This document shows positions 5,990-17,603 of a stretch of 35,215 nt of DNA, in pieces. The stretch spans positions 1-35,215 of the forward strand of contig NZ_RAWE01000089.1 of the NCBI RefSeq assembly GCF_003611695.1. The letters run 5' to 3'. The stretch comes from Corallococcus carmarthensis. Its GTDB lineage: Bacteria > Myxococcota > Myxococcia > Myxococcales > Myxococcaceae. Positions within the stretch are counted from its first letter, which is position 1. Every line of letters begins with the position of its first letter. Position numbers and translations under genes: made by a program. The notes under the pieces were generated by a model. The model did not search any database, was not told the DNA's origin, and saw nothing but the letters and a program-made list of their open reading frames with translations.

Positions 5990-6955
5990 TCAGTAGACGG
6001 CGAGCGCTTGCGGCAGGTGGTAGCTGACGATGGTGAGCACGGGGATCTTCGGACCCTCGTCCTCGTCGTCGGTGGTCATGCCGGAGGTGACGCGCAGGCC
6101 GTCGAAGCGCGCGAGGATGACGTAGTCGCGGCGGGTCTCCAGGAAGGGATCCGGCGCGGCCAGCCGGCCCAGGGCTTCGCGGCCGGTCTCCTCGGAGAGG
6201 TTGTCGTAGGTGCGCTCGGAGGCGGACTGGGTGGTGCTCTCGCGGGTGAAGATGGTGCCGCCGACGCGGCCCTCGCCGGTGAGCGCCGTGCGTCCGCCCA
6301 GGTCCCCGGAGGACTGCGTCACGGTGTCGGTGTTGTACGCGATGCCGACCTCGCGGCGGGAGCCCACGGACTGGAGGCCCTGCTCCACCAGCCACAGCGT
6401 GGGGCGCTCTCCTTCCGAGCGCTGGTCGGCCACCTGCGCGCGCAGGAGCACGTAGCGGCCGCGGTAGGTGTCCGGCTGGGCGACGGCGGACGCGAGCGAG
6501 AAGATGGGTACCTTGCGCGCGTGGAGCAGGCGCAGCTCGCCGTCCACGCTGCCGCCGCGCTGGGCCACGACGCGGGCGATGAGGTTGGCGGCGTCCGGAC
6601 GCACGCGCAGGTCCTCCGCCCAGGCGCTGCCGAGCACGGCGCCCAGCTGCGTGAAGCCGGGGGCCTCCGCGCAGACCTTGAGGGCCAGCCACGCGTCGTC
6701 GCGCGAGGTCGCCTGGAGCCTGCGGGCGGCGCCCTCACAGGTGGCGGGCGTGGGGAAGCGCGCCAGGAACGCACGGGCGTCATGCGGCGACGGGGGCGGC
6801 TCCTCGGCGGCGACGGAGCGCCTTTCTGCGGGCGGAGGTGTCGTCGGCGGGGGCGCGTCCGTGAGGGCGCGGTCCTCCAGCGCGACGTGGGAGTGCGAGG
6901 CACCGCAGCCGGTGGCGAGCGCACCCAGGAGGGTCAGCAACGGAAGACGGGGCAT
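5990..6955 (-). CDS. Large lipoprotein of unknown function
   Basis: The 321-residue predicted lipoprotein begins MPRLPLLTLLGALATGC with Cys17 as the lipidation site. The ATG at 6955 has AAGGAG 9 bases upstream. Residues ~25-60 are a Pro/Ala linker, then a helical segment (DARAFLARFPTPATCEGAAR), then a beta-rich part beginning VPIFSLASAVAQPDTYRGRY. The phrase PDTYRGRYVLLRAQV looks like the OB-type fold of envelope proteins (a question of whether a step moves a small ligand through a strand barrel), but no named family is clear. It lies 33 bp downstream of the 14-cysteine gene and is probably co-transcribed with it. Confidence 0.8.
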   Translation of the reverse strand: MPRLPLLTLLGALATGCGASHSHVALEDRALTDAPPPTTPPPAERRSVAAEEPPPSPHDARAFLARFPTPATCEGAARRLQATSRDDAWLALKVCAEAPGFTQLGAVLGSAWAEDLRVRPDAANLIARVVAQRGGSVDGELRLLHARKVPIFSLASAVAQPDTYRGRYVLLRAQVADQRSEGERPTLWLVEQGLQSVGSRREVGIAYNTDTVTQSSGDLGGRTALTGEGRVGGTIFTRESTTQSASERTYDNLSEETGREALGRLAAPDPFLETRRDYVILARFDGLRVTSGMTTDDEDEGPKIPVLTIVSYHLPQALAVY

Positions 6956-6988
6956 GGCGCGGGGCTCCTTGAAGTGCGGTTCGGCGGG

Positions 6989-7678
6989 CTACAGCGCGGC
7001 GGAGTCGGTGTGCTGCGTGCTCGCGCGCGACGGCGCCTGGCGCGGAATGGACGCGGACGAGGGCAGCATCATGGAGCAGGCGTCGTGGCAGCGGTCGTCC
7101 ATGCACGCGAGCGTGGTGGGCCCGGCCTGCTGCCGCGACACGGCCGCGTAGCAGCTCTCGCCGGTGCCGGGGCACTGGCTGCGCGCGGCGCATTCACAGC
7201 AGGTGGAGGCCACGGAGGCCATCAGCTGCACGTCCTGGAGCACCGTGGACAGCGCGCGGTAGCAGGCGCGGGCCGCGGGCGCGAAGCGGCCCTTGGCGTC
7301 CACCACCGGCGTGTTGCCTTCGATGCCGCAGCGGCCCACGACGTCCGCGTACTTGCGCTCGCAGACGGCGACGAGCTTCGGATCCGGGATGCCGTCCCGC
7401 GCGTTGCTCACGGCCTCCGAGCAGAGGGCGCGCGACGCGTCCTTCAGCAGCTTCACGTTGGCGGCCTCCTGGTCCGCGTTCGCGGCTTTGGGAGGCAGCA
7501 CCTCCGCTTCGAACACGCACTCCTTGCCCGCGCGCAGCGTGTCGATGGTGCACGACCACGCGGTGGGAGACGCGTCCACGAGCGGGGGCGCCCCCAGCGC
7601 TTCGGGAGGCAGGGACGACGGCGCGGGGCCGGACGGCGCGGCGCCGAGGAAGAGCAGGGATAGGAGCATCGCCTTCAT
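6989..7678 (-). CDS. Exported cysteine-rich protein (14 Cys)
   Basis: The 229-residue product starts MKAMLLSLLFLGAAPSG, a short signal peptide probably cleaved by signal peptidase I near residues 15-20. The mature part holds 14 cysteines, including the cluster CCECAARSQC and later CMDDRCHDAC. An even number of cysteines in an exported protein suggests up to seven disulfides. Spacing such as C-x3-C near the end is reminiscent of small Cys-rich repeats in myxobacterial secreted proteins, but I cannot name a family. It is followed 33 bp later by the lipoprotein at 5990-6955, suggesting a two-gene unit. It may also receive transcription from the six-gene operon ending 34 bp upstream. Confidence 0.75.
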   Translation of the reverse strand: MKAMLLSLLFLGAAPSGPAPSSLPPEALGAPPLVDASPTAWSCTIDTLRAGKECVFEAEVLPPKAANADQEAANVKLLKDASRALCSEAVSNARDGIPDPKLVAVCERKYADVVGRCGIEGNTPVVDAKGRFAPAARACYRALSTVLQDVQLMASVASTCCECAARSQCPGTGESCYAAVSRQQAGPTTLACMDDRCHDACSMMLPSSASIPRQAPSRASTQHTDSAAL

Positions 7679-7712: not shown

Positions 7713-9533
7713 TCAAACCGCTCCGCCGGGAGGATGTTCGTCCTCCATCATGACCATGGGTCCGGGCGGACCAGTCTCTGGCTTCACCGGAAGCGCCTTC
7801 GTGCGGCTGATGACAATGGGCGGCTCGATGAGCCGGGGCGGTGTCGCCCGCGTGTCCGCCGGGTCCGGCACCCACACCGGATCCTCCGGTCCGCTCCCCC
7901 GCTTCCACTTGCGCGGCACCCGCCGGAAACCCACCGGGTACACCGTCAGTTGGCCCTCCGTGTCGAAGTGGAGCCGGAGGAAGTTCTTCCAGTCCGGAAT
8001 GGACAGCGACGAGAACGCCTCGTTGGGGTGACAGGAGAACACGTTGAGCGACAGCAGCAGGTACACGCCCACCACCAGGGGCCCCACCAACGCGCCGCCG
8101 CCCAGCAGCAGCAGTCCGCTGAGGAAGTCCCGCCGCAGGCTCCACTGGAGCTCCGCCGCCAGCGGCGCGGCGATGGCGGACACGCCCCAGGTGAGCAGCA
8201 GCGCCGCGGCCACGTGCGCCAGGCCATGCACGACGCCAGCGGCCTTCTTCCAGAGCGGTCCCCTGCGGCCGTCCGCGAACGCCACGGTGCCCAGCACCAC
8301 CCCCGCCCCCAGCACCAGGGAGCCCGTGCTCTGCAACGCCGCGTTGATGACCTCCCGGAACGAAGGCGCCCCCACGGCGCCCTCGTTGAGGTTCGCGGCG
8401 ATGCCCCAGCCCAGCAGCGTGTAGATGACGCCCATGAAGGCGCTGAACCACGGGTTGAGCACGGGGAACAGCAGGTTGCGCCAGGTGAGCCGCTGCGACG
8501 TCCGCTGCGGCGGGTAGCACTCCTTCAGCTCGAAACCGCCCGGCCGCCGGTCCACCTTCGGCAGGTGCGTGGGGTGCAGGAAGGCCCCTCCCCCACCCGC
8601 GACGATCTTCTGCCGCCCATCCGCGTCCTCGTGCCGGCGGTAGTGGTGCAGGTCTCCCGCGAGGAAGATGCTCACCTTCTTGCCCAGCACCTTGCGCTCC
8701 AGGAAGTCGATGTTGTTGTCCAGGAAGCCGCGGCCCGCGTGGGGCATCACCTGCTGTTTGATCCACGCCGGCTCCGCGTTGCAGAGGATGACGCGATCCG
8801 TGTCCTCCATGCACGCGGCCACCTTCTGGAAGAACCTCACCTGCGGCGCGTCCAGATCGGACTCCAGTTGCATGTCCGTGCCCAGCAGCCACCAGCCGTG
8901 CGGCAGCTTCAGCGCGAAGTAGCTGCGCCGCTGCTGCGTGCGCCAGCCGCTGGAGAATCGGCCCTGGCAGAACAGGCGCGTGAACGACACCAGCCCGTCG
9001 TACCAGTCGTGGTTTCCTGGCACCGCGAACAGGTGCGGCCGGTGGCGCCGCCGGTTCAAGGCGTCCTCGTACGGCACCACCGTGCGCGCCTGGTACTCCT
9101 CCACGCTCGCGGTCGGATAGACCTCGTCCCCACCGAACACGAGCACGTCGCCGCCCCGGGTGACGTGCGTCCTCCCGGAGTCATCCGTCAGCTCCAGCTC
9201 CGGCGCCATCACCGTGGAGGCCACCGCGTAGGTGGAGTCCCAGCCGTCGCCCAGGTCCGACACGTAGTCCAGCCACAGCTCGTCGCGCGGGTGCTTGGAC
9301 GCGTCCAGCGAGTAATCAAACGCCAGCTTCTGGGGCTGCGACACCGCGTCCAGCAGCCGCCGGTCCGCCTGCCTTCCGAACGTGCCCGACAGGAGCGCCT
9401 TCAGGCCCGACTTCACGAGCACGGCCGGGTCGAACCACGACACCATCGGCTTGCCCGGAGGCGTCTCCGACGGGGGCCCGGGCCGCGTGCGCCGGCCCGG
9501 GATGCGGCTCACATCGGAGGCGCGGACGGCCAT
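7713..9533 (-). CDS. Metallophosphoesterase with C-terminal membrane domain
   Basis: The 606-residue product has a calcineurin-like phosphoesterase domain (residues ~88-340) with GGDEVYP (135-140), GNHDWYDG (173-180) and the metal-binding AGDLHHYRRH (292-301). The usual first motif DxH is replaced by SDLGDGWD (92-99), so metal site 1 may be altered. Residues ~355-500 contain about four membrane segments (WFSAFMGVIYTLLGWGIA; STGSLVLGAGVVLGTVAF; VAAALLLTWGVSAIAAPLA; FLSGLLLLGGGALVGPLVVG). A soluble Pro-rich tail follows. It probably hydrolyses a phosphodiester or phosphomonoester at the membrane. The ATG at 9533 has GGAGGAG just upstream and overlaps the GMC gene by 25 bp. It is the last gene of the six-gene unit. 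Confidence 0.9.
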   Translation of the reverse strand: MAVRASDVSRIPGRRTRPGPPSETPPGKPMVSWFDPAVLVKSGLKALLSGTFGRQADRRLLDAVSQPQKLAFDYSLDASKHPRDELWLDYVSDLGDGWDSTYAVASTVMAPELELTDDSGRTHVTRGGDVLVFGGDEVYPTASVEEYQARTVVPYEDALNRRRHRPHLFAVPGNHDWYDGLVSFTRLFCQGRFSSGWRTQQRRSYFALKLPHGWWLLGTDMQLESDLDAPQVRFFQKVAACMEDTDRVILCNAEPAWIKQQVMPHAGRGFLDNNIDFLERKVLGKKVSIFLAGDLHHYRRHEDADGRQKIVAGGGGAFLHPTHLPKVDRRPGGFELKECYPPQRTSQRLTWRNLLFPVLNPWFSAFMGVIYTLLGWGIAANLNEGAVGAPSFREVINAALQSTGSLVLGAGVVLGTVAFADGRRGPLWKKAAGVVHGLAHVAAALLLTWGVSAIAAPLAAELQWSLRRDFLSGLLLLGGGALVGPLVVGVYLLLSLNVFSCHPNEAFSSLSIPDWKNFLRLHFDTEGQLTVYPVGFRRVPRKWKRGSGPEDPVWVPDPADTRATPPRLIEPPIVISRTKALPVKPETGPPGPMVMMEDEHPPGGAV

Positions 9534-11284
9534 GGCCCCTCCTCCGGTGCCCGCCACGCACGTCCCCGCGTGGCGCGGCGGTGCGAATCGATGAGCGCAT
9601 CCGCGAAGCGGTCCGCGAGCGCGGCGATGGTGAGGCTCGGGTTGGGTCCGGTGGGGCCCGGCATCATCGCGCCGTCGACCACGTAAAGCCCCGGATGACC
9701 AAAGGCCTCGCCCGTCGCGTCCACCACGCCCGTCTCCGGACCGCGGCCCATGGGACAGCCGCCCAGCGGGTGCACGGTGATGACCCGGCTCAAGTAGCTG
9801 AGCGGGTTCTGCACCAGCTTGCCCTCCAGCGTCCGGGCAATGTCCGCCATCGAGTGGCGCACCTCATCGAAGTACTCGCGCGAGCCGCTCATCCGCCAGT
9901 CGATGTTCAGCATCCCGTCCTCCGTCAGCCGCATGTGGCCGCTGGGGAGGTCGCGCCCCATGCCCAGCAGCGGCAGCGACGTCGCGGAGCCCAGGCAGTC
10001 CCCGAGCAGCTCGGCGATCTCCTCGCTCACGTCCGAGTCGCGCGTGAGGCCCGTCCATCCGCGGAGGAGGCGCCACGCCAGCCGCAGGCCGCGCTGCACC
10101 AGCGGCACCTGGTGCGCGCCTTCGTAGAGCCAGTTGACGAACTCCGGGTAGCCCGCGTCCTCGATGTAGTAGCCACGGCCCGTGCCGCCCTCCTCCCTGC
10201 CCCGGAAGTGCAGCGCGCTGGTGATGACCGGGCCGTGCCCGCCCTCCAGGATGCGCGGCAGCTGCTTGCCGGTGCTCGAATCGTGGCACTGACGCATGAA
10301 GCCCAGCAGGTCTCCGTTGCCGCAGAAGCGCGTGCCCAGCTGTCCGCTCAGCCCCGGGAAGTTCCGCTGGTTCTTCAAGAGCAGGAACGGGGTGCCGAAC
10401 GTGCCCGCGGCCAGCACCAACCGGTCCGCCGTCACGGTGCTGCGAGGCAGCATCGACTGGGGACCTTCACGCGGCACGTCCTCCGGCGTGTCCGTGTGGT
10501 CCAGGTAGCGCACCACGTAGCCGCCGCCCTCCGCGGGCCACAGCTCCGTCACCTCCGCGCGCGTGCGAAGCTCCGCACCGGCGCGCTTCGCAGCGGACAG
10601 GTACGTGTAATCGAGCGTGTTCTTGCTGCCCGTGTTGCAGCCGATGTCGCACTCGCCGCAGAGATGGCAGGTGGTGCGCGTGCGGTGATGGAGGTTCTCG
10701 GGCTCCCCACGGATGGGCTCACCGGGGACGGGCACCTCGCCGGGGTTGCCGAACGTCACCGCCAGCGGCGGCAGCTGCCAGTCACGCGCGCGGCCCAGGC
10801 GCTCGGCCGCGAGCTTCATGGCCAGCGTCTTCGCGGTGGACGAGTACGGAGGATGCTCCAGCGGGTAGCGCTGCACACGCATCATCCGCTCCACGGCGTC
10901 GTAGTGCGTCTCCAGGTCGGCGCGGGTGACGGGCCAGTCCTCGTAGCCTCCGTCGTGGAGGTCCTCGTGGATGAAGGTCTTCTCGTCCTTGCGCAGCAGC
11001 ACGTTGGCGTAGATGAGCGACCCGCCGCCCAGCCCCGCGGACACCACGCCGCCCAGCCCCTGGAAGGACCAGAGGTTGAACAGGCCGTGCATCCCCTTGC
11101 TCGGGTCCCAGAAGTTGCGGCGCATGTCGTGCGGGCTGCGCGGGAAGGAGCCCGGCGGATACGCCTTGCCGCGCTCCAGCACGCACACCCGCAGGCCGGC
11201 CTCCGCCAGCCGCCACGCCATCACCGAACCGCCGAAGCCCGAGCCCACGATGACGACGTCGAAGTGCTCAGCCCTCGTGGCCAT
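9509..11284 (-). CDS. GMC-family FAD-dependent oxidoreductase (cholesterol/fatty-alcohol oxidase-like)
   Basis: The 591-residue protein starts with an FAD-binding Rossmann motif (VIVGSGFGGS, residues 11-20) and carries the flavin-site GLGGGSLIYANV (84-95). It ends with a GMC active-site region: HPLGGCPMG (His505) and GPTGPNPSLTIAALADR (Asn548). It therefore probably oxidises an alcohol of a hydrophobic substrate such as a sterol or long-chain alcohol. C206, C209, C212 and C216 form CxxCxxCxxxC, the spacing of a ferredoxin 4Fe-4S site, which is unusual in classical GMC enzymes, though related long-chain alcohol oxidases carry Cys-rich inserts here. No signal peptide is seen. It overlaps the patatin gene by 17 bp and has GGGGAGG before the ATG. 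Confidence 0.93.
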   Translation of the reverse strand: MATRAEHFDVVIVGSGFGGSVMAWRLAEAGLRVCVLERGKAYPPGSFPRSPHDMRRNFWDPSKGMHGLFNLWSFQGLGGVVSAGLGGGSLIYANVLLRKDEKTFIHEDLHDGGYEDWPVTRADLETHYDAVERMMRVQRYPLEHPPYSSTAKTLAMKLAAERLGRARDWQLPPLAVTFGNPGEVPVPGEPIRGEPENLHHRTRTTCHLCGECDIGCNTGSKNTLDYTYLSAAKRAGAELRTRAEVTELWPAEGGGYVVRYLDHTDTPEDVPREGPQSMLPRSTVTADRLVLAAGTFGTPFLLLKNQRNFPGLSGQLGTRFCGNGDLLGFMRQCHDSSTGKQLPRILEGGHGPVITSALHFRGREEGGTGRGYYIEDAGYPEFVNWLYEGAHQVPLVQRGLRLAWRLLRGWTGLTRDSDVSEEIAELLGDCLGSATSLPLLGMGRDLPSGHMRLTEDGMLNIDWRMSGSREYFDEVRHSMADIARTLEGKLVQNPLSYLSRVITVHPLGGCPMGRGPETGVVDATGEAFGHPGLYVVDGAMMPGPTGPNPSLTIAALADRFADALIDSHRRATRGRAWRAPEEGPWPSAPPM

Positions 11285-13391
11285 GCGTGGCCTCCCCTTC
11301 CCTCTCGCGCACCGGAGCCTCCGGGGCGTAGAGGTCCCAGAGCGCTCCCAGGAACAGGTGGCCGAAGCGGGCCACCATGCCCGCGCCCTCCACGCCCCCG
11401 CGTGACGAGCGCATGCTGGAGACCAGGTGGAGCAGCTCCCGCATGCCCAGCACCAGGACGCCCGCGCCCACCACCGGGCCTCGCGCGTCCGGGCCCTGGT
11501 GCAGGTAGCTGTAGAGGCGCGTGGTGTCGCGCCAGAGATCCGGTCCCGGGTCGTCGCGCAGCGTCTTCGTGCCGTCCAGGAAGTAGTCCTGGCCGTTGGC
11601 CTGGAAGCGCAGGCCGTAGGTCATGATCTTCGTGCGCGGATCATCCGTGGCGCGGAAGAGGTTGAAGCTCCCCTCGCGCACGGGCAGGTCCATGCCCAGC
11701 GGTTTGTATTGCACGTGCGCCACCAGCCGGGCCGTGTGATCCGGGTCCCGGATGAACGCCTCCATGTCGTCGATGGTGATGGTGCAATGCATGGTGAAGG
11801 GCGTGGAGCGCCCGTCATGGGCGCCCGCCTCGGGGTCGGAGGTGCCCATCGCGAGCGGACCGGCCATGGTCTCGCGGAAGGTCAGGTCATAGGCGGGTTC
11901 AGTCATCTGCGTGATCTCCGGGGTGAGAGGCAGGCCCTGGGCGTCCGCCACCTTCAGGTAGCGCCAGGCGTCCGAGTAGCCCTGGTCGATGAGGGTCGCG
12001 GCCGTGATGTGGCCCGCGTAGAAGTCCGGGTCCAACGGCAGCGGGTGCTCCGGTTTGATGACGTGCACGGTGATGGGCCGCGCGTGTCCCGGCACGTGCT
12101 CGCCCGCGAGGATGCGCGCGTTGAGCTCGCGCACCTGCTCCAGTTCGGCGAAGAGCGCGCCGTTCGCGCTCAGCTCAATCATGTGGACGTACTGACGGAA
12201 GAAGCCGTCGTGGTAGCGGGGCGTGTTGCCGATGCACCAGATGACCCACACCTCGTCCGCCCCCCGGTGCACGGCCTCCATCACGTTGGCGTCCTGGATC
12301 CACACCGAGTCCAGGTAGAGGTGGCCGTCCCTCGCCACGGGAGGCATGAAGAGCGGCAGGGAGATGCCCGCCACCAGCAGGTCGCGGTCCACGTCCGTGT
12401 GCGCGATGGCCTCGTTCGTCTTCCGGGCGAAATCGCACACGTTGAAGGTGCCCGTCCGGTCGCGGTTCGCGCGGATGGCGTCCACGTCCACGCCCAGGTG
12501 CGGGAAGACGCGCTGGACGATGCCGTCCGCGTCCCCCAGCGCGGTGAGCTTCCAGGGCCGCGCGTATTCATCCAGCGGCATCAGCGACACGAAGTCCTTC
12601 ACGTCCAGCGTCCGCCACCGCTCGCACATCTCCGCGGGGGACAGCCCTGACATCCACATCGCCAGGGTGATGATTCCGCCCGACGTGCCGTCCGCGTGGG
12701 AGAAGGACAGCCGCGCATCCGTCAGCGCGCGCAGCACGCCCGCCTGCCACGCGACGCGCATGCCGCCCCCCGCGAGCACCAACGACCGCCGGGGCGCCTC
12801 CGGCGGGGACGCCCGGACGACCTGGCCCTCCCCCAACATCCGCAGGGGGCGCCCCAGCGGCTTGGGCTCGCGGGTCGCATCCGCCACGCGTAGCGCGCTG
12901 ACGGTGGGAGGACTGGCGGCCTCTGGAGGCGCCTCCTCCGCCTGCGGCTTGAGCACGGTGATGATCTGCTCGCGCTGGCGCAGCGATGCGTAGAACGCCA
13001 GCACCAGCACGGCGGACACGGCGTCGAACGCGGCGACCGCCAGCGCCAGCGGCGACAGCAGGCCGCGCCCCACGCCGATGGCCACCATCACGCAGGCCCC
13101 CACCTTCTCGAGGCCAGTCCACAGGAACGCGGCCGGGTTCGCGCGAGGCTCATGCAGGCCGTGCAGGAGCAAGCCTCCGAACAACACCATGAACATGCCC
13201 ACGATGCGGAAGAAGTACGCGGGCGTCGCGGACGTATCCGCGCGCAGCAGGTGCAGCTCCACCCCCGGAATGAGCAGTTGCACCACGCCGGCCACGAGCG
13301 TGATCCACCCGATGGCCGCGAGCACCCAGCGCCAGGGACGCCCATTGACGCGGGCCTGACGCTCCAGCCATCGCGACGCGGCCGGGCTCAT
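11268..13391 (-). CDS. Membrane-anchored patatin-like phospholipase with extra C-terminal domain
   Basis: The 707-residue protein has four hydrophobic segments in residues ~21-136 (WVLAAIGWITLVAGVVQLL; FFRIVGMFMVLFGGLLLHGL; GACVMVAIGVGRGLLSPLAL; AVSAVLVLAFYASL), then a patatin domain from ~203 to 400. It shows the oxyanion motif GGGMR (208-212), the nucleophile elbow GTSGG with Ser237, and the catalytic-Asp candidate QDAN (Asp367). A lipid acyl hydrolase facing the membrane is likely. Residues ~530-690 are a separate domain (PFTMHCTITIDDMEAF, then LGMDLPVREGSFNLF, then YFLDGTKTLRDD), which I recall, without being able to search, from large GMC-oxidoreductase fusion proteins. The ATG at 13391 overlaps the preceding stop as ATGA; the 52 extra upstream codons are not used. 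Confidence 0.9.
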   Translation of the reverse strand: MSPAASRWLERQARVNGRPWRWVLAAIGWITLVAGVVQLLIPGVELHLLRADTSATPAYFFRIVGMFMVLFGGLLLHGLHEPRANPAAFLWTGLEKVGACVMVAIGVGRGLLSPLALAVAAFDAVSAVLVLAFYASLRQREQIITVLKPQAEEAPPEAASPPTVSALRVADATREPKPLGRPLRMLGEGQVVRASPPEAPRRSLVLAGGGMRVAWQAGVLRALTDARLSFSHADGTSGGIITLAMWMSGLSPAEMCERWRTLDVKDFVSLMPLDEYARPWKLTALGDADGIVQRVFPHLGVDVDAIRANRDRTGTFNVCDFARKTNEAIAHTDVDRDLLVAGISLPLFMPPVARDGHLYLDSVWIQDANVMEAVHRGADEVWVIWCIGNTPRYHDGFFRQYVHMIELSANGALFAELEQVRELNARILAGEHVPGHARPITVHVIKPEHPLPLDPDFYAGHITAATLIDQGYSDAWRYLKVADAQGLPLTPEITQMTEPAYDLTFRETMAGPLAMGTSDPEAGAHDGRSTPFTMHCTITIDDMEAFIRDPDHTARLVAHVQYKPLGMDLPVREGSFNLFRATDDPRTKIMTYGLRFQANGQDYFLDGTKTLRDDPGPDLWRDTTRLYSYLHQGPDARGPVVGAGVLVLGMRELLHLVSSMRSSRGGVEGAGMVARFGHLFLGALWDLYAPEAPVREREGEATHGHEG

Positions 13392-13930
13392 GCGTGGGCC
13401 TCCCGGCGCGGCGGCACGGACAGCCCGAAGCGCCAGTGCTCTCCCGCCGGGTGCTCCGCGCGCAGCATCCGGTGCACGAAGTAGCCCAGCGTCAACAGCC
13501 ACTGCACCGTCCACAGCCCCACGCGGATGCGGTTCATCCGCATCCACGCGCCCAGCACATCGGTCAGGCGTTCAGGCGACGTGATGCCGGCCGCCATCTC
13601 GTCGTTGTACGGGAAGATGTAGATGCGCGTGAGCAGCGTGGCCACCACCACCGCCACCAGCACGCCCAGCGGATACCAGAGCAGGCCCGTCTTGCGCTCG
13701 CGCCACGCCAGCACCCCGGCCGACAGCAGCATCACCGCCGTCATCCAGGTGAAGAACCGCGTGGCCGCCTGCACCTGCGGCACGAACTGCAGGTAATAGT
13801 TGTCCACCGTGAGCCGCGGCGCGATGGGGAACGAGAAGAGGATCAGCGACCAGCCCGTGCCCAGGTACATGGACGCGCACAGGAACAGCAGGCACGCGTT
13901 CGCCAGATTCAGGCCGCCGCCACGCTTCAT
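13388..13930 (-). CDS. Four-segment membrane protein of unknown function (180 aa)
   Basis: The 180-residue protein has about four transmembrane helices: ANACLLFLCASMYLGTGWSL (~9-30), FFTWMTAVMLLSAGVLAW, LLWYPLGVLVAVVVATLLT, and VGLWTVQWLLTLGYFVHRML. Charged loops between helices 1-2 and 3-4 contain RLTVDNYYLQF and TSPERLTDVLGAWMRMNRIR. The topology resembles DUF1772/anthrone-oxygenase-like membrane proteins but I cannot confirm membership. The ATG at 13930 overlaps the stop of the decarboxylase-like gene (ATGA), and its own stop overlaps the patatin start in the same way, so its output is tied to both neighbours. It could be a subunit or chaperone for the membrane enzymes of the unit. Confidence 0.85.
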   Translation of the reverse strand: MKRGGGLNLANACLLFLCASMYLGTGWSLILFSFPIAPRLTVDNYYLQFVPQVQAATRFFTWMTAVMLLSAGVLAWRERKTGLLWYPLGVLVAVVVATLLTRIYIFPYNDEMAAGITSPERLTDVLGAWMRMNRIRVGLWTVQWLLTLGYFVHRMLRAEHPAGEHWRFGLSVPPRREAHA

Positions 13931-14871
13931 GGCCGTGATTCCCCGCGCGGGGTGCGCGCTTCCCCAGGCGGCACTGCTTCCTGGAGCGCCATCGGCGGCT
14001 GCCCGTTCGACTCCGGAGGCGGCATGGGCGTCTGGTCCTGGCCCAGATCCACCACGCTCTCCAGCCCCTCCGGATACGTGGCGTCGGGGAGCGTGGGCTG
14101 GGTGAGGAACCACGCCTCGAAGTGGTCATCCAGCACGCCGCTGGACGCCGGGAAGAACCCGGTGAGGAAGGCGCGCGGGGAGATGCTCAAATCCCGCAGC
14201 GCCTGCACGCGCGGGTGGTCTCCCAGCTCCAGCGTCCCCCACGCCCGCTTCCCCATCCGGAAGCCGAAGCGGCCCCGGAAGTAGATGGTGGACTTCATCA
14301 GCATGCCCCGGAAGGCGCAGTAGTTCACCGCCGCCATCTTCAGCGGCAGCCACGCGAACTTCGGCCGTTCGATGCGCACGCGCACCGCCTGCTGGCCTCC
14401 TTCTTCGTAGCGGCTGCTGACGGAGCCGTCCTCCATCTGGAAGTCCAGCCGGGCCAGGTGCTTGGGCATGCCCCAGATGCCCTTGCCGCCCTTCACGGAC
14501 ACCTCCGTGTTCACCGGCAGGTCCACCACGTACTGCCCCAGGCCGAAGCGCTTCTGGAACAGCAGCGGCAACAGCGGCGGCGCGGGCCTGGGGCCGTGCG
14601 TGCATGCGAGCGCGATGCTGAACTCGATGTACGCGCCGATGTCCGTGTGTCTGTAGTCGATGACGGAGATGAGCAGCACGGCCCGGTCGCGCGACAGGCG
14701 CAGCGGGTGCAGTTCGTTGCCGGGCAGCAGGTTCGCCGCGCGGCGGGCGTCCACGGTGAAGGCGGCCACCATCGCCGGTGCGCCTTTCGAATCCACCGGC
14801 AGCGCGTAGGGGATGCCGTCCACCCGCGAGTAGCGGCCGGACTGTTTCTGGATGCGTCGGGGGAGGAACAT
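13927..14871 (-). CDS. Acetoacetate decarboxylase-family protein
   Basis: The 314-residue product has the ADC fold signature: SGRYSRVDGIPYALPV near the N-terminus, an ADC-like core, and GIWGMPKHLARLDF (131-144). The Lys in MPKH (Lys137) aligns with the Schiff-base lysine of acetoacetate decarboxylase (PKK motif). The adjacent pKa-lowering lysine of true ADC is His138 here, so true acetoacetate decarboxylation is doubtful; many ADC-like proteins act on other keto acids or as aldolases/dehydratases. The C-terminal ~35 residues are Pro/Gln-rich and probably disordered. The ATG at 14871 is 17 bp after the hydrolase stop; the stop overlaps the next ATG. The substrate is probably a beta-keto or related product of lipid oxidation, by context. 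Confidence 0.88.
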   Translation of the reverse strand: MFLPRRIQKQSGRYSRVDGIPYALPVDSKGAPAMVAAFTVDARRAANLLPGNELHPLRLSRDRAVLLISVIDYRHTDIGAYIEFSIALACTHGPRPAPPLLPLLFQKRFGLGQYVVDLPVNTEVSVKGGKGIWGMPKHLARLDFQMEDGSVSSRYEEGGQQAVRVRIERPKFAWLPLKMAAVNYCAFRGMLMKSTIYFRGRFGFRMGKRAWGTLELGDHPRVQALRDLSISPRAFLTGFFPASSGVLDDHFEAWFLTQPTLPDATYPEGLESVVDLGQDQTPMPPPESNGQPPMALQEAVPPGEARTPRGESRP

Positions 14872-14888
14872 GGCGGGCCTTTCGTCAG

Positions 14889-15947
14889 TCAGTGGAGCAC
14901 GGGGCGATCCAGCTCGGAGAGGATGAGGGGGAAGACGTCCTGGGAGGCGTGCTTGCCCATGAAGACGTCCAGGTGGCCGTAGCCCGGCAGCATGTGCAGC
15001 GCGTGCCGGCCCGGGTGGAAGTGCTCCAGGTGTTCGAAGCTGCGGCGCTGGCTCTCCGCGAGGAAGCACTGGTTCTGCTCGCCCGCGAAGAAGACGAAGC
15101 GCGCATCCGTTTCGGGCTCGCGCTCGCCCAGGTCCTCGGGCAGCGCGCGGAAGCCCTCCACTGGCACCAGGTGGCCGGCGCGCACGCACGCGTCCATCTG
15201 GCGGAAGAAGCTGAAGGGCACCGGGCCGAACTCGTGCTGGAGCCAGTCGTGCGTGCGGGCGTTCAGGTTCTCGTGCCGCCACAGCACCGGGAAGCCCGTG
15301 CCGTAGGTGAAGCTCGTCCAGCGGCAGACCAGGTTCTCGCACTCGTGATGTGTCGCCTGCACCACGCGCGTCAGCATCCGCGCCGTGCGCGTGGGGCCGC
15401 CGTAGGCCCACTGTGGATCCAGGAAGGGCGTCAGCTGCGCGACCAGCGGGACGGCGTAGTGCAGCTTCAGCTTCGCGGTCGCGGGCACCACCGGGTGCAG
15501 CGACACCGCGTTGGTGATGATGAGGTCCACCTGCGGCAGCAGCCCCGCCACCGCGGCCATGGTGAAGCTGGTGGAGCCCTGGCAGTGGATGATGGCCTTG
15601 ACCTTGTCCGCCCCCGTCTTCTCCACCACGGTGCGGATGGCGGGCGGGTGGTCCAGGACGGCAGCCTGGTCCAACGTCCACTCGCCCGGCTCCACGTCCA
15701 TGCTGGCGCGCCAGTTCTCCAGCCACACGTCGTAGCCGTCTTCAATCAGCGCATCGACCACTGTCTGGCGCACTGGCGCGCGGAAGATGTTCCCGCGCAC
15801 ACCGGCTCCGTGCACCAGCACCACCGGCCCCTTGTCCGCCTTCTTCAGACCGCGCAGGTGCACCAGGTGCAACGCGCGGCCGTCGCCCGCGAGGAAGGGC
15901 ACGATCTCCTCGGAGTAGCGAGGCTCATGAATGGTTTCCGCGGACAT
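14889..15947 (-). CDS. Alpha/beta-hydrolase fold protein with Cys at the nucleophile position
   Basis: The 352-residue protein has the oxyanion segment VVLVHGAGVRG (42-52), a nucleophile elbow IIHCQGST (119-126) where Cys122 stands in place of the usual Ser, and a late GYGHLDVFMGKHASQDVFP with the catalytic-type His325. Cys nucleophiles in this fold are established for polyhydroxyalkanoate synthases (GxCxG); here the elbow is H-C-Q-G-S. An acyl-transfer or thioesterase-like reaction on a lipid is plausible. I chose the ATG at 15947 because GGGGGGA lies just upstream and the preceding 17 codons are GC-biased noise. It is the first gene of the six-gene unit and is divergent from the gene at 16117; the promoter should lie in 15948-16116. 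Confidence 0.88.
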   Translation of the reverse strand: MSAETIHEPRYSEEIVPFLAGDGRALHLVHLRGLKKADKGPVVLVHGAGVRGNIFRAPVRQTVVDALIEDGYDVWLENWRASMDVEPGEWTLDQAAVLDHPPAIRTVVEKTGADKVKAIIHCQGSTSFTMAAVAGLLPQVDLIITNAVSLHPVVPATAKLKLHYAVPLVAQLTPFLDPQWAYGGPTRTARMLTRVVQATHHECENLVCRWTSFTYGTGFPVLWRHENLNARTHDWLQHEFGPVPFSFFRQMDACVRAGHLVPVEGFRALPEDLGEREPETDARFVFFAGEQNQCFLAESQRRSFEHLEHFHPGRHALHMLPGYGHLDVFMGKHASQDVFPLILSELDRPVLH

Positions 15948-16116: not shown

Positions 16117-16464
16117 ATGAACGCGGACACGGGCTGGAGCGACTACGAGGGCGGCGTGACGCTCGGGGGCATGGGAAGCCAGGGCGGCACCATCGCGCGG
16201 GACGAGGGCTTCCGCGACCTCTTGCGCCTGACCTATGAGGCGGACGACTCGCGCTCCTTCCACGTCGTCACCTGCGGCATCTCCGGCTGGCTGGTGCATC
16301 CGCGCTTCTTCGACAACGCCGCGGAGGCGCTCCACGCCTTCGAGTCCATGAAGCCCGCGCTGGAGGAGCTGGGCGCGACGCTTCCCGAGGGCGGGCCAAA
16401 GTCCCAGGCCGACGGACGGGCAGCGGGTCCGCTGCTCGCTGCCTTCCGCGTGCGCTTTTCCTGA
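16117..16464 (+). CDS. Small unknown protein (115 aa)
   Basis: The 115-residue soluble protein begins MNADTGWSDYEGG. A Gly-rich start (GGVTLGGMGSQGGTIARDEG) is followed by a short alpha/beta segment, LLRLTYEADDSRSFHVVTCGISGWLVHPRFF, and a helix AEALHAFESMKPALEELGA. No signal peptide or membrane helix is visible. The only purine-rich sequence before the ATG (GTGAGG) is very close to the start. It is divergent from the six-gene unit and lies 134 bp before the dioxygenase gene; that gap shows no convincing promoter or terminator. No family is recognised. Confidence 0.7.
   Translation: MNADTGWSDYEGGVTLGGMGSQGGTIARDEGFRDLLRLTYEADDSRSFHVVTCGISGWLVHPRFFDNAAEALHAFESMKPALEELGATLPEGGPKSQADGRAAGPLLAAFRVRFS

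Positions 16465-16598: not shown

Positions 16599-17603
<1,005 letters not shown>

What the first reader, a model, noticed from the sequence alone, without database searches (positions are those of the whole stretch)
7713..15947. Six-gene, translationally coupled lipid-oxidation cassette
An alpha/beta hydrolase with Cys nucleophile, an ADC-like protein, a membrane protein, a membrane patatin, a GMC oxidase with a four-Cys motif and a membrane metallophosphoesterase are joined by a 17-bp gap, two ATGA overlaps, a 17-bp overlap and a 25-bp overlap. The set covers deacylation, alcohol oxidation, keto-acid handling and phosphate removal: a possible pathway for a sterol, glycolipid or long-chain alcohol in the envelope. 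From memory, GMC oxidases and Cys-nucleophile hydrolases also occur as single fused proteins elsewhere, which would support a shared pathway.
Basis: partly seen in the sequence, partly recalled or inferred. Interest (0 to 1): 0.75.

Follow-up and report, generated by a model that had tools for sequence, protein, structure and literature searches.

The report
Six-gene lipid-oxidising enzyme cassette
Six neighbouring bacterial genes, probably building one membrane-side set of enzymes that frees and oxidises some oily alcohol, travel together across distant bacteria and share a previously unnamed linking domain; what they act on is still unknown.

Summary
It is more than chance. In the 30 Myxococcota genomes with the cassette-type ADC, that gene sits directly beside the hydrolase in 30 of 30 and within 8 kb of the GMC gene in 29 of 29; the phosphoesterase is linked in 25 of 30. 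Flanking genes are conserved only inside the genus. Nine of nine newly fetched loci from two actinobacterial groups hold the same set as a cyclic permutation of this order (phosphoesterase in 7); large parts occur in Proteobacteria and an acidobacterium. Many more distant GMC relatives lack partners (27 of 80 loci).
The "oxidase" has three invariant cysteines (92/92) at the [3Fe-4S] ligand positions of FAD glucose dehydrogenase, so is more likely a dehydrogenase. The hydrolase is an acid-lipase fold whose Ser/Asp have become Cys/Asn.
Best reading: a horizontally spread, PATC-organised deacylation and alcohol-oxidation module. Substrate and direction are unknown. Ten searches of the held library found no description.

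The parts
14889..15947 (-). ABH, 352 aa: alpha/beta hydrolase of acid-lipase fold with Cys122 in place of Ser, Asn292 in place of Asp, His325
   Evidence: nearest solved folds lysosomal acid lipase 6v7n Z 32.7 (rmsd 3.1, 323 aligned) and gastric lipase 1k8q Z 32.1 (rmsd 3.4, 317 aligned)
13927..14871 (-). ADC-like protein, 314 aa, cassette-specific subfamily; KGGKGIWGMPKH stretch with Lys137
   Evidence: PF06314 60.3 bits; Lys137 13/13; in the phylum, cassette members >=474 bits, all other matches <=91 bits
13388..13930 (-). MEM, 180 aa membrane protein, distant anthrone-oxygenase-like
   Evidence: 20.1 bits, below cut-off 27.3; Arthrobacter homologue 27.7, just above
11268..13391 (-). PAT, 707 aa: N-terminal TM-like region (about residues 1-170), patatin domain (Ser237, Asp361), then PATC
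11268..11939 (-). PATC, the C-terminal domain of PAT (about residues 485-707): unnamed hub domain, elsewhere fused to GMC and/or ABH or encoded alone
9509..11284 (-). GMC flavoprotein, 591 aa, catalytic pair His505/Asn548
10637..10669 (-). Cys206-x5-Cys212-x3-Cys216 (plus Cys209): predicted [3Fe-4S] ligands
   Evidence: same columns and spacing as Cys212/218/222 of B. cepacia FAD glucose dehydrogenase
7713..9533 (-). MPE, 606 aa calcineurin-type metallophosphoesterase with three TM-like segments near residues 400-500
   Evidence: (metal-site residues 16/16)

Best explanation
This is a complete copy of an apparently undescribed, horizontally spread enzyme cassette that works as one membrane-side assembly. 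SHOWN (by sequence): the six genes stay together across genera and phyla; PATC is a shared hub domain fused to patatin, GMC or ABH in different organisms; active-site residues are conserved. INFERRED: the membrane-anchored patatin and the acid-lipase-like ABH, a Cys-His-Asn enzyme that works through an acyl-thioester intermediate, release or transfer an acyl group of a hydrophobic lipid. PATC docks the enzymes or holds the greasy intermediate. The GMC oxidises the exposed (probably secondary) hydroxyl through FAD and a [3Fe-4S] cluster to a membrane electron acceptor rather than to O2. The ADC-like Lys enzyme then acts on the beta-keto acid formed (decarboxylation, or related Schiff-base chemistry), and MPE removes a phosphate from the lipid head or product. 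A 3-hydroxyacyl lipid or a triterpenoid/sterol-like ester would fit the chemistry; the substrate is not known.
For: Linkage: ABH-ADC adjacent 30/30, ADC-GMC 29/29, MPE-GMC 25/30. Flanking genes kept around the cassette in 7 own-genus loci (three of four genes in 7/7, the fourth in 6/7) and found in 0 of 14 other-genus loci. Cross-phylum: GMC, PATC, ABH, ADC, MEM, TM and patatin in 9/9 newly fetched loci of two actinobacterial groups, MPE in line in 7/9; all families in a Solirubrobacteraceae MAG and two Arthrobacter, most in Acetobacteraceae and Duganella, partial sets in a gammaproteobacterium and an acidobacterium. Patchy: 1/294, 3/232, 9/295 genomes with the cassette-type ADC. PATC: one match (E <= 1e-8) per genome or record in 9/9 cassette-bearing ones tested. 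Fusions: GMC-PATC 34, TM-patatin-PATC 13, patatin-PATC 7, GMC-PATC-ABH 7, PATC-ABH 4. GMC: 92/92 for three ligand cysteines, His505 92/92, Asn548 89/91; ligand columns match BcGDH; top fold fructose dehydrogenase large subunit 8k6k Z 38.9 (rmsd 3.6, 467 aligned), then cholesterol oxidase 1b8s Z 37.3 (rmsd 2.7, 458 aligned). ABH: Cys122 56/56, Asn292 55/56, His325 54/56, acid-lipase folds 6-7 Z above the next group. A metallophosphoesterase of another type stands beside, or one gene from, the divergent GMC in two further cassettes.
Against: No substrate, product, cofactor or transcript was measured. Of 80 loci found with a GMC query, 27 hold no other cassette family within the stretch (some are short contigs, but five of them, L110, L112-L114 and L116, have GMCs at 43-54% or more), 35 hold only ABH, GMC and PATC, and 51 hold PATC. 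MPE is unlinked in 5/30, has a paralogue in most of the family and occurs without GMC elsewhere. Patatin and MEM are missing from some cassettes. One congener (G064) keeps PATC-GMC-MPE but has neither ABH nor ADC at the locus (L071; no ADC match in its genome). In G201 (L104) the ADC match is distant (267 bits), on the other strand about 5 kb from the GMC, and no MEM or patatin was found. The Fe-S cluster rests on motif and fold alone. Cholesterol oxidases score best by sequence and lack the cysteines in the aligned stretch. The modelled GMC-PATC is a relative (L102), not the window protein. PATC's fold was not searched on its own.
Confidence: 0.55

Rival explanations
1. A steryl-ester or triterpenoid-ester pathway proper: ABH (cholesteryl-ester-hydrolase fold) frees a sterol or hopanoid-type alcohol, GMC (cholesterol-oxidase relative) makes the 3-ketone, and the other enzymes process acyl and phosphate parts.
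For: ABH nearest folds include lysosomal acid lipase/cholesteryl ester hydrolase; GMC nearest by sequence is cholesterol oxidase (E 1.2e-52 with a profile; NCBIfam NF058674 201.6 bits); the genome has a triterpene-cyclase family protein (PF13243, 215.9 bits).
Against: NF058674 cut-off is 850 bits; the fold search puts fructose dehydrogenase slightly ahead; no 3-oxosteroid 1-dehydrogenase above cut-off in the genome (best 34.7 against 788 bits; the 14 control genomes also give sub-threshold matches). Mycobacterial 'ChoD' GMC proteins are reported to lack cholesterol-oxidase residues (PMC4626898, passages read); I did not test how close they are to this GMC.
Confidence: 0.15
2. A biosynthetic or tailoring cassette: the Cys-His-Asn ABH is an acyltransferase (PHA-synthase-like), and the set builds or modifies an envelope or storage lipid.
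For: Cys nucleophile as in PHA synthase (recalled); PhaC among the next folds (9knk Z 25.8, rmsd 2.9, 287 aligned) and weak sequence matches; a PhaE-annotated gene lies within 10 kb of the R. leguminosarum fusion. [quoted passage not shown] the paper itself is not held).
Against: The acid-lipase folds score 6-7 Z higher; patatin and phosphoesterase partners suggest breakdown; PhaE proximity seen once.
Confidence: 0.2
3. The genes are merely co-inherited: a mobile island of unrelated lipid enzymes without a shared pathway.
For: Patchy distribution; MPE and patatin/MEM are separable; GMC relatives often stand without the others.
Against: Direct protein fusions joined by one shared domain, conserved order blocks between phyla, ABH-ADC adjacency 30/30.
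Confidence: 0.07

Closest known systems
Cholesterol oxidase, class I GMC (1coy, 1b4v; NCBIfam NF058674)
   Same: Best sequence relatives of the GMC; same fold (1b8s Z 37.3, rmsd 2.7, 458 aligned); the His and Asn of the catalytic pair align
   Different: 201.6 bits against a cut-off of 850; none of the ligand cysteines in the aligned stretch
Fructose dehydrogenase large subunit / FAD glucose dehydrogenase alpha subunit (7w2j, 8k6k; 6a2u, 8grj)
   Same: Top fold match (8k6k Z 38.9, rmsd 3.6, 467 aligned) and the same C-x5-C-x3-C columns (PMC6719666 passages)
   Different: No PF13618 gamma subunit beside it (the genome's only match is on another contig), no cytochrome gene among the six, 20-21% identity over the structural alignment
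Acid lipases: gastric lipase, lysosomal acid lipase (1k8q, 6v7n)
   Same: Same fold over nearly the full chain (Z 31.7-32.7) and aligned active-site positions
   Different: Ser and Asp replaced by Cys122 and Asn292; 16-19% identity; no N-terminal hydrophobic stretch by hydropathy scan
Acetoacetate decarboxylase family (PF06314)
   Same: Above the gathering score; the PK lysine is shared with an annotated family member
   Different: Cassette members form their own group in the phylum (>=474 bits against <=91 for other matches)
Patatin-like phospholipases (PF01734)
   Same: GGGxR stretch, Ser237, Asp361
   Different: TM region in front and PATC behind; the Asp lies in 'DSV', not the usual DG[GA] (motif recalled)

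Membership tests
GMC oxidoreductase superfamily | Pfam N and C domains and His/Asn catalytic pair | tested here: met
   (36.9 and 68.9 bits, both over cut-off); His505 92/92, Asn548 89/91
Cholesterol oxidase (NF058674 equivalog) | Score over the curated cut-off | tested here: not met
   201.6 bits against 850
Cholesterol oxidase (NF058674 equivalog) | Oxidation of 3beta-hydroxysterols with O2 | not testable with these tools
   needs an assay
[3Fe-4S] FAD dehydrogenases (BcGDH, FDH) | Three cysteine ligands C-x5-C-x3-C in the same columns | tested here: met
   (by way of the genome's own GDH alpha), with ligands named in PMC6719666; 92/92 invariant
[3Fe-4S] FAD dehydrogenases (BcGDH, FDH) | Gamma (hitchhiker) subunit encoded beside it | tested here: not met
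   only PF13618 match of the genome is on contig C82, beside another GMC
[3Fe-4S] FAD dehydrogenases (BcGDH, FDH) | Bound cluster and cytochrome electron acceptor | not testable with these tools
   no cofactor data; no cytochrome gene among the six
Acid lipase family | Acid-lipase alpha/beta fold | tested here: met
   6v7n Z 32.7, rmsd 3.1, 323 aligned; profile E 1.7e-18 to gastric lipase
Acid lipase family | Ser-Asp-His triad | tested here: not met
   Cys122 56/56 and Asn292 55/56 at the aligned positions
PHA synthase | Cys nucleophile | tested here: met
   Cys122 56/56
PHA synthase | Score over the NCBIfam cut-off | tested here: not met
   TIGR01838 16.1 bits against 622.65
Acetoacetate decarboxylase family | PF06314 gathering score and active-site lysine | tested here: met
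   60.3 against 29.8; Lys137 13/13. That this Lys is the Schiff-base Lys is recalled
Acetoacetate decarboxylase family | Decarboxylase activity | not testable with these tools
   the superfamily also holds other activities (recalled)
Patatin | PF01734 score; GGGxR, nucleophile Ser, Asp | tested here: met
Calcineurin-type metallophosphoesterase | PF00149 gathering score | tested here: inconclusive
   21.4 against 21.5 bits; key residues of the GGD, GNHDW and GDxHxY motifs 16/16
Anthrone oxygenase (PF08592) | Gathering score | tested here: not met
   window 20.1 against 27.3; Solirubrobacteraceae homologue 26.7, Arthrobacter 27.7
Known anti-phage defence proteins | PADLOC model match | tested here: not met
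   0 of 6 proteins at E 0.01

The most novel reading that the evidence does not exclude
An undescribed cross-phylum lipid-processing machine organised by a new hub domain (PATC): a modular 'deacylase - flavin/iron-sulphur alcohol dehydrogenase - Schiff-base decarboxylase - phosphoesterase' assembly in which PATC passes a hydrophobic intermediate between a Cys-His-Asn acid-lipase-like acyl enzyme and a [3Fe-4S] GMC dehydrogenase feeding the membrane electron-transport chain, on a lipid class not yet assigned to any known pathway.
Probability: 0.4. Interest if true: 0.78.

Novelty: new variant of a known kind. Interest (0 to 1): 0.6.

Why it matters
A conserved gene set with an unnamed connecting domain points to a bacterial lipid pathway that current annotation breaks into 'GMC oxidoreductase', 'alpha/beta fold hydrolase' and 'hypothetical protein'. 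If right, many GMC proteins of this group would be iron-sulphur dehydrogenases rather than oxidases; PATC would become a marker for finding the pathway; and the single-protein GMC-PATC-hydrolase version gives a ready purified test object. Related fused proteins occur in rhizobia, Leptospira, Bacteroidota and myxobacteria.

Tried and rejected
Extra conserved partners: all-against-all comparison of ORFs from 40 loci (25 largest groups read) gave mostly what look like antisense frames of the cassette genes, one group of SARP-like regulator matches in 10 loci and one of signalling proteins in 6; inspection of crude gene calls in 11 loci showed no seventh shared enzyme. This is not a formal test. 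PATC in Pfam: 31 members scanned, five families with one member each at E 0.023 or worse. PHROGs: 0 families for 6 queries. PATC against the ADC profile: probability 0.2, no relation. Alignment A3 (PATC-ABH fusions with fragments) was misaligned and not used. The viral-fold search gave GMC and other flavoproteins at the top; the PDB fold search of GMC-PATC was filled by GMC folds over residues 3-572, so PATC's fold stays untested. The PAT-GMC fusion of G071 (L040) was rejected as evidence: the join runs from inside PATC into about GMC residue 42 and drops the FAD-binding glycines, so it is a deletion or an assembly fault. One ORF of L104 with an ADC match and a short GMC match was not interpreted. 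Promoter/terminator scan: one promoter-like site (shuffles 0.3) and one terminator-like site (shuffles 2.5), both on the plus strand inside genes. ADC against the PDB: no match; a plasmid ADC relative: none either. MPE against the PDB: nothing credible. The pattern C-x5-C-x3-C was not found in the genome's own GDH alpha; reading it showed one extra residue between the last two cysteines, and the alignment still pairs all four columns.

Rows dropped before the residue counts: of 133 GMC, 79 ABH, 26 ADC, 23 patatin and 25 MPE places, those with stop codons or below a length limit were left out and near-duplicates removed, leaving 92, 56, 13, 13 and 16 sequences, window included. An error of mine: two of the 18 query pieces (an L079 patatin piece and an L074 PATC piece) were read out of frame. 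Rerun with one corrected and one left out: the nine loci, seven others and all fusion counts stand unchanged.

Literature: searches and 117 of the held open-access library listed no paper on the cassette; subscription papers are mostly not held. Seen: PMC6719666 passages; PMC13083261 passages, irrelevant; PMC13066512 passages; PMC4626898 passages. All others: search listing only.
Full report
Observation. Six minus-strand genes lie between 15947 and 7713 exactly as described: ABH 15947-14889, ADC 14871-13927, MEM 13930-13388, PAT 13391-11268, GMC 11284-9509 and MPE 9533-7713, joined by a 17-bp gap, two ATGA overlaps, a 17-bp and a 25-bp overlap. The assembly has 10.8 Mb; a paralogous GMC region is 86% identical in DNA to Corallococcus llansteffanensis and 78% to Myxococcus xanthus (best segments), so the window is probably from Corallococcus.

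The unit is real inside the phylum. Of 147 class genomes searched with the GMC, 37 hold a close relative (62-100% identity, 793 bits or more), 15 of 16 in the own genus; the next match scores 276 bits. The cassette ADC is in 30 of 96 family genomes, one copy each; in the phylum search (195 genomes) 30 genomes score 474-539 bits while the remaining 8 places, in 7 genomes, score 91 bits or less. In all 30, ABH lies directly beside ADC; in 29 of 29 genomes with both, ADC and GMC are within 8 kb; in 25 of 30 with both, MPE is within 4 kb of GMC. The two mismatches: G061, where the contig ends inside PAT, and G064, where PATC-GMC-MPE remain but ABH, ADC, MEM and the patatin part are not found before the upstream neighbours. 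In the five genomes with unlinked MPE, the two loci read (L162, L163) have it beside a second patatin-PATC gene. Four further genomes (genus g6) have ABH-PATC-GMC without ADC, and three of genus g3 have PATC-GMC with a distant ABH.

Natural boundaries. The two genes downstream (6989-7678, 5990-6955) and two upstream (16117-16464, 16599-17603) accompany the cassette in the 7 own-genus loci tested (16599-17603 in 6 of them) and in none of 14 loci of other genera. So the inherited unit is the six genes, not the stretch of chromosome.

Other phyla. A plasmid search with the PATC domain gave 9 records. Arthrobacter StoSoilB13 holds all six families, its MPE split over two frames. Among these 80: Arthrobacter SW1 and a Solirubrobacteraceae MAG have all families; Acetobacteraceae has ABH-ADC-MEM-TM-patatin-PATC-GMC; Duganella ABH-ADC-patatin-PATC-MPE-GMC; a gammaproteobacterium ABH-PATC-MPE-GMC; an acidobacterium PATC-ADC-ABH at a contig end with a divergent GMC. 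In these last four the GMC is only 33-34% identical although ABH is 55-60%. PATC is found in 51 of 80; 35 hold ABH, GMC and PATC only (ABH 31-65%, mostly 31-35%); 27 hold the GMC alone. An ADC search not steered by GMC, around three of these genomes, found 1 of 294, 3 of 232 and 9 of 295 genomes. Of these 13, four were known loci: three with the set described above and one (G201, L104) with a distant ADC (267 bits), GMC, PATC-ABH and MPE nearby but no MEM or patatin. The nine others were fetched: 9 of 9 have GMC, PATC, ABH, ADC, MEM, TM and patatin in one row, with MPE in line in 7. Their order, GMC, PATC, MPE, ABH, ADC, MEM, patatin, is a cyclic permutation of the window's ABH, ADC, MEM, patatin-PATC, GMC, MPE. 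The scatter suggests horizontal spread (inference; no tree was built).

PATC, the overlooked part. In several myxobacteria the patatin portion is missing and only the last ~200 residues of PAT remain. Across loci L038-L159 I found ORFs with GMC-PATC (34), TM-patatin-PATC (13), patatin-PATC (7), GMC-PATC-ABH (7), PATC-ABH (4) and PATC-GMC (1); these loci were fetched mostly with GMC queries, so the counts are not frequencies. In 9 of 9 cassette-bearing genomes or records tested, one PATC match was found at E <= 1e-8; more divergent second copies behind the patatin exist in some (26-28% identity), and the own genome has further PATC domains beside GMC paralogues. No Pfam family is convincing for any of 31 members. 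In the GMC-PATC model (L102, mean pLDDT 83.8, pTM 0.68) PATC is a mostly confident, largely beta domain with C-terminal helices; its fold was not searched alone.

GMC. Closest by sequence are cholesterol oxidases; by fold fructose dehydrogenase 8k6k (Z 38.9, rmsd 3.6, 467 aligned), then cholesterol oxidase 1b8s (Z 37.3, rmsd 2.7, 458 aligned). Cys206, Cys212 and Cys216 are invariant in 92 of 92 dereplicated sequences, Cys209 is Cys in 72. In B. cepacia glucose dehydrogenase the [3Fe-4S] cluster is held by Cys212, Cys218 and Cys222 (PMC6719666, passages). The genome's own glucose-dehydrogenase-type GMC aligns to that enzyme and to the window GMC, pairing the three ligand columns. So an Fe-S dehydrogenase is predicted; a cluster has not been shown. 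There is no adjacent gamma subunit.

ABH. AlphaFold2 model mean pLDDT 93.9. Nearest solved folds: lysosomal acid lipase 6v7n (Z 32.7, rmsd 3.1, 323 aligned) and gastric lipases (Z 31.7-32.1), then monoglyceride lipase and PHA synthase at 25.8. Aligned to gastric lipase, the nucleophile Ser is Cys122 (56/56) and the acid Asp is Asn292 (55/56; one Asp), with His325 (54/56; two Tyr); that these are the catalytic residues of gastric lipase is recalled. A Cys-His-Asn set suggests thioester chemistry, hydrolysis or transfer (inference).

Other members. ADC: Lys137 in a KGGKGIWGMPKH stretch, 13/13 for the lysine. Patatin: Ser237 and Asp361, 13/13. MPE: metal-site motif residues 16/16, PF00149 score marginal. 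Two cassettes carry a phosphoesterase of another type beside GMC (L140) or one gene away (L133), which argues that the activity matters; but MPE also lives without GMC.

Function. The chemistry that fits all parts is release of an acyl or hydroxyacyl lipid, oxidation of a secondary hydroxyl, handling of a beta-keto acid, and dephosphorylation, at the inner membrane: ABH, ADC and GMC have no hydrophobic segment and none of the six an RRx[FILVM] motif in the first 35 residues, while PAT, MPE and MEM have TM-like segments (signal peptides were not tested otherwise). This is inference. A sterol-ring route is unlikely to be complete here: the best 3-oxosteroid-1-dehydrogenase score is 34.7 bits against a cut-off of 788, although a triterpene cyclase family protein is present. 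Indirect expression evidence from a relative: in Leptospira interrogans, neighbouring locus tags called 'alpha/beta fold hydrolase' and 'cholesterol oxidase' fall together (log2 -1.63 and -1.31; PMC13066512, passages); the L. borgpetersenii plasmid has a fused GMC-PATC-ABH followed by a second, unannotated GMC stretch in two frames, but I did not check that these are the same genes.

Verdict. Observation confirmed; interpretation partly supported and extended. No description was found in ten searches of the held library. Interest 0.6: the genetics is strong and new to the sources at hand, the substrate is open.

Noticed in passing
window 5990-7678 (-): Two genes follow MPE on the same strand (first gap 34 bp), one looking like a secreted protein and one like a lipoprotein; they stay with the cassette only inside the genus and match no Pfam or NCBIfam model at E 0.01.
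   Followed up: partly
window 16599-17603 (+): Divergent gene with an intradiol dioxygenase domain (PF00775, 42.5 bits), an N-terminal RRSILRG stretch and a Gly/Pro/Asp-rich tail.
   Followed up: no
L057 (G000:C54) and L058 (G000:C222): The same genome has two further PATC loci: GMC-PATC, GMC, ABH in a row, and a GMC-PATC fusion.
   Followed up: partly
L040 3907-7560: In congener G071 the patatin and GMC genes are joined in one frame by a deletion that removes most of PATC and the GMC FAD-binding glycines; deletion or assembly fault.
   Followed up: partly
L071: Congener G064 keeps PATC-GMC-MPE but ABH, ADC, MEM and the patatin part are not found before the upstream neighbours.
   Followed up: partly
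L008 / L166 (G000:C82): A gamma-alpha glucose-dehydrogenase-type pair with a Tat-like gamma subunit and a four-Cys motif with one extra residue.
   Followed up: partly
L089 5790-8696, L096 5694-8663, L073 1971-4874: Large regulators (AAA_16 plus LuxR-type, or SARP) stand directly beside three of the three-gene actinobacterial versions.
   Followed up: no
L079 8645-10745: The MPE reading frame of Arthrobacter StoSoilB13 is split over two frames.
   Followed up: no
L148 937-4152: A CHAT-domain protein with weak TPR matches lies just upstream of the Duganella cassette.
   Followed up: no
L140 11584-12918 and L133 5589-6929: A second metallophosphoesterase type (444-446 aa, PF00149 53-54 bits) beside or one gene from divergent cassette GMCs.
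   Followed up: partly
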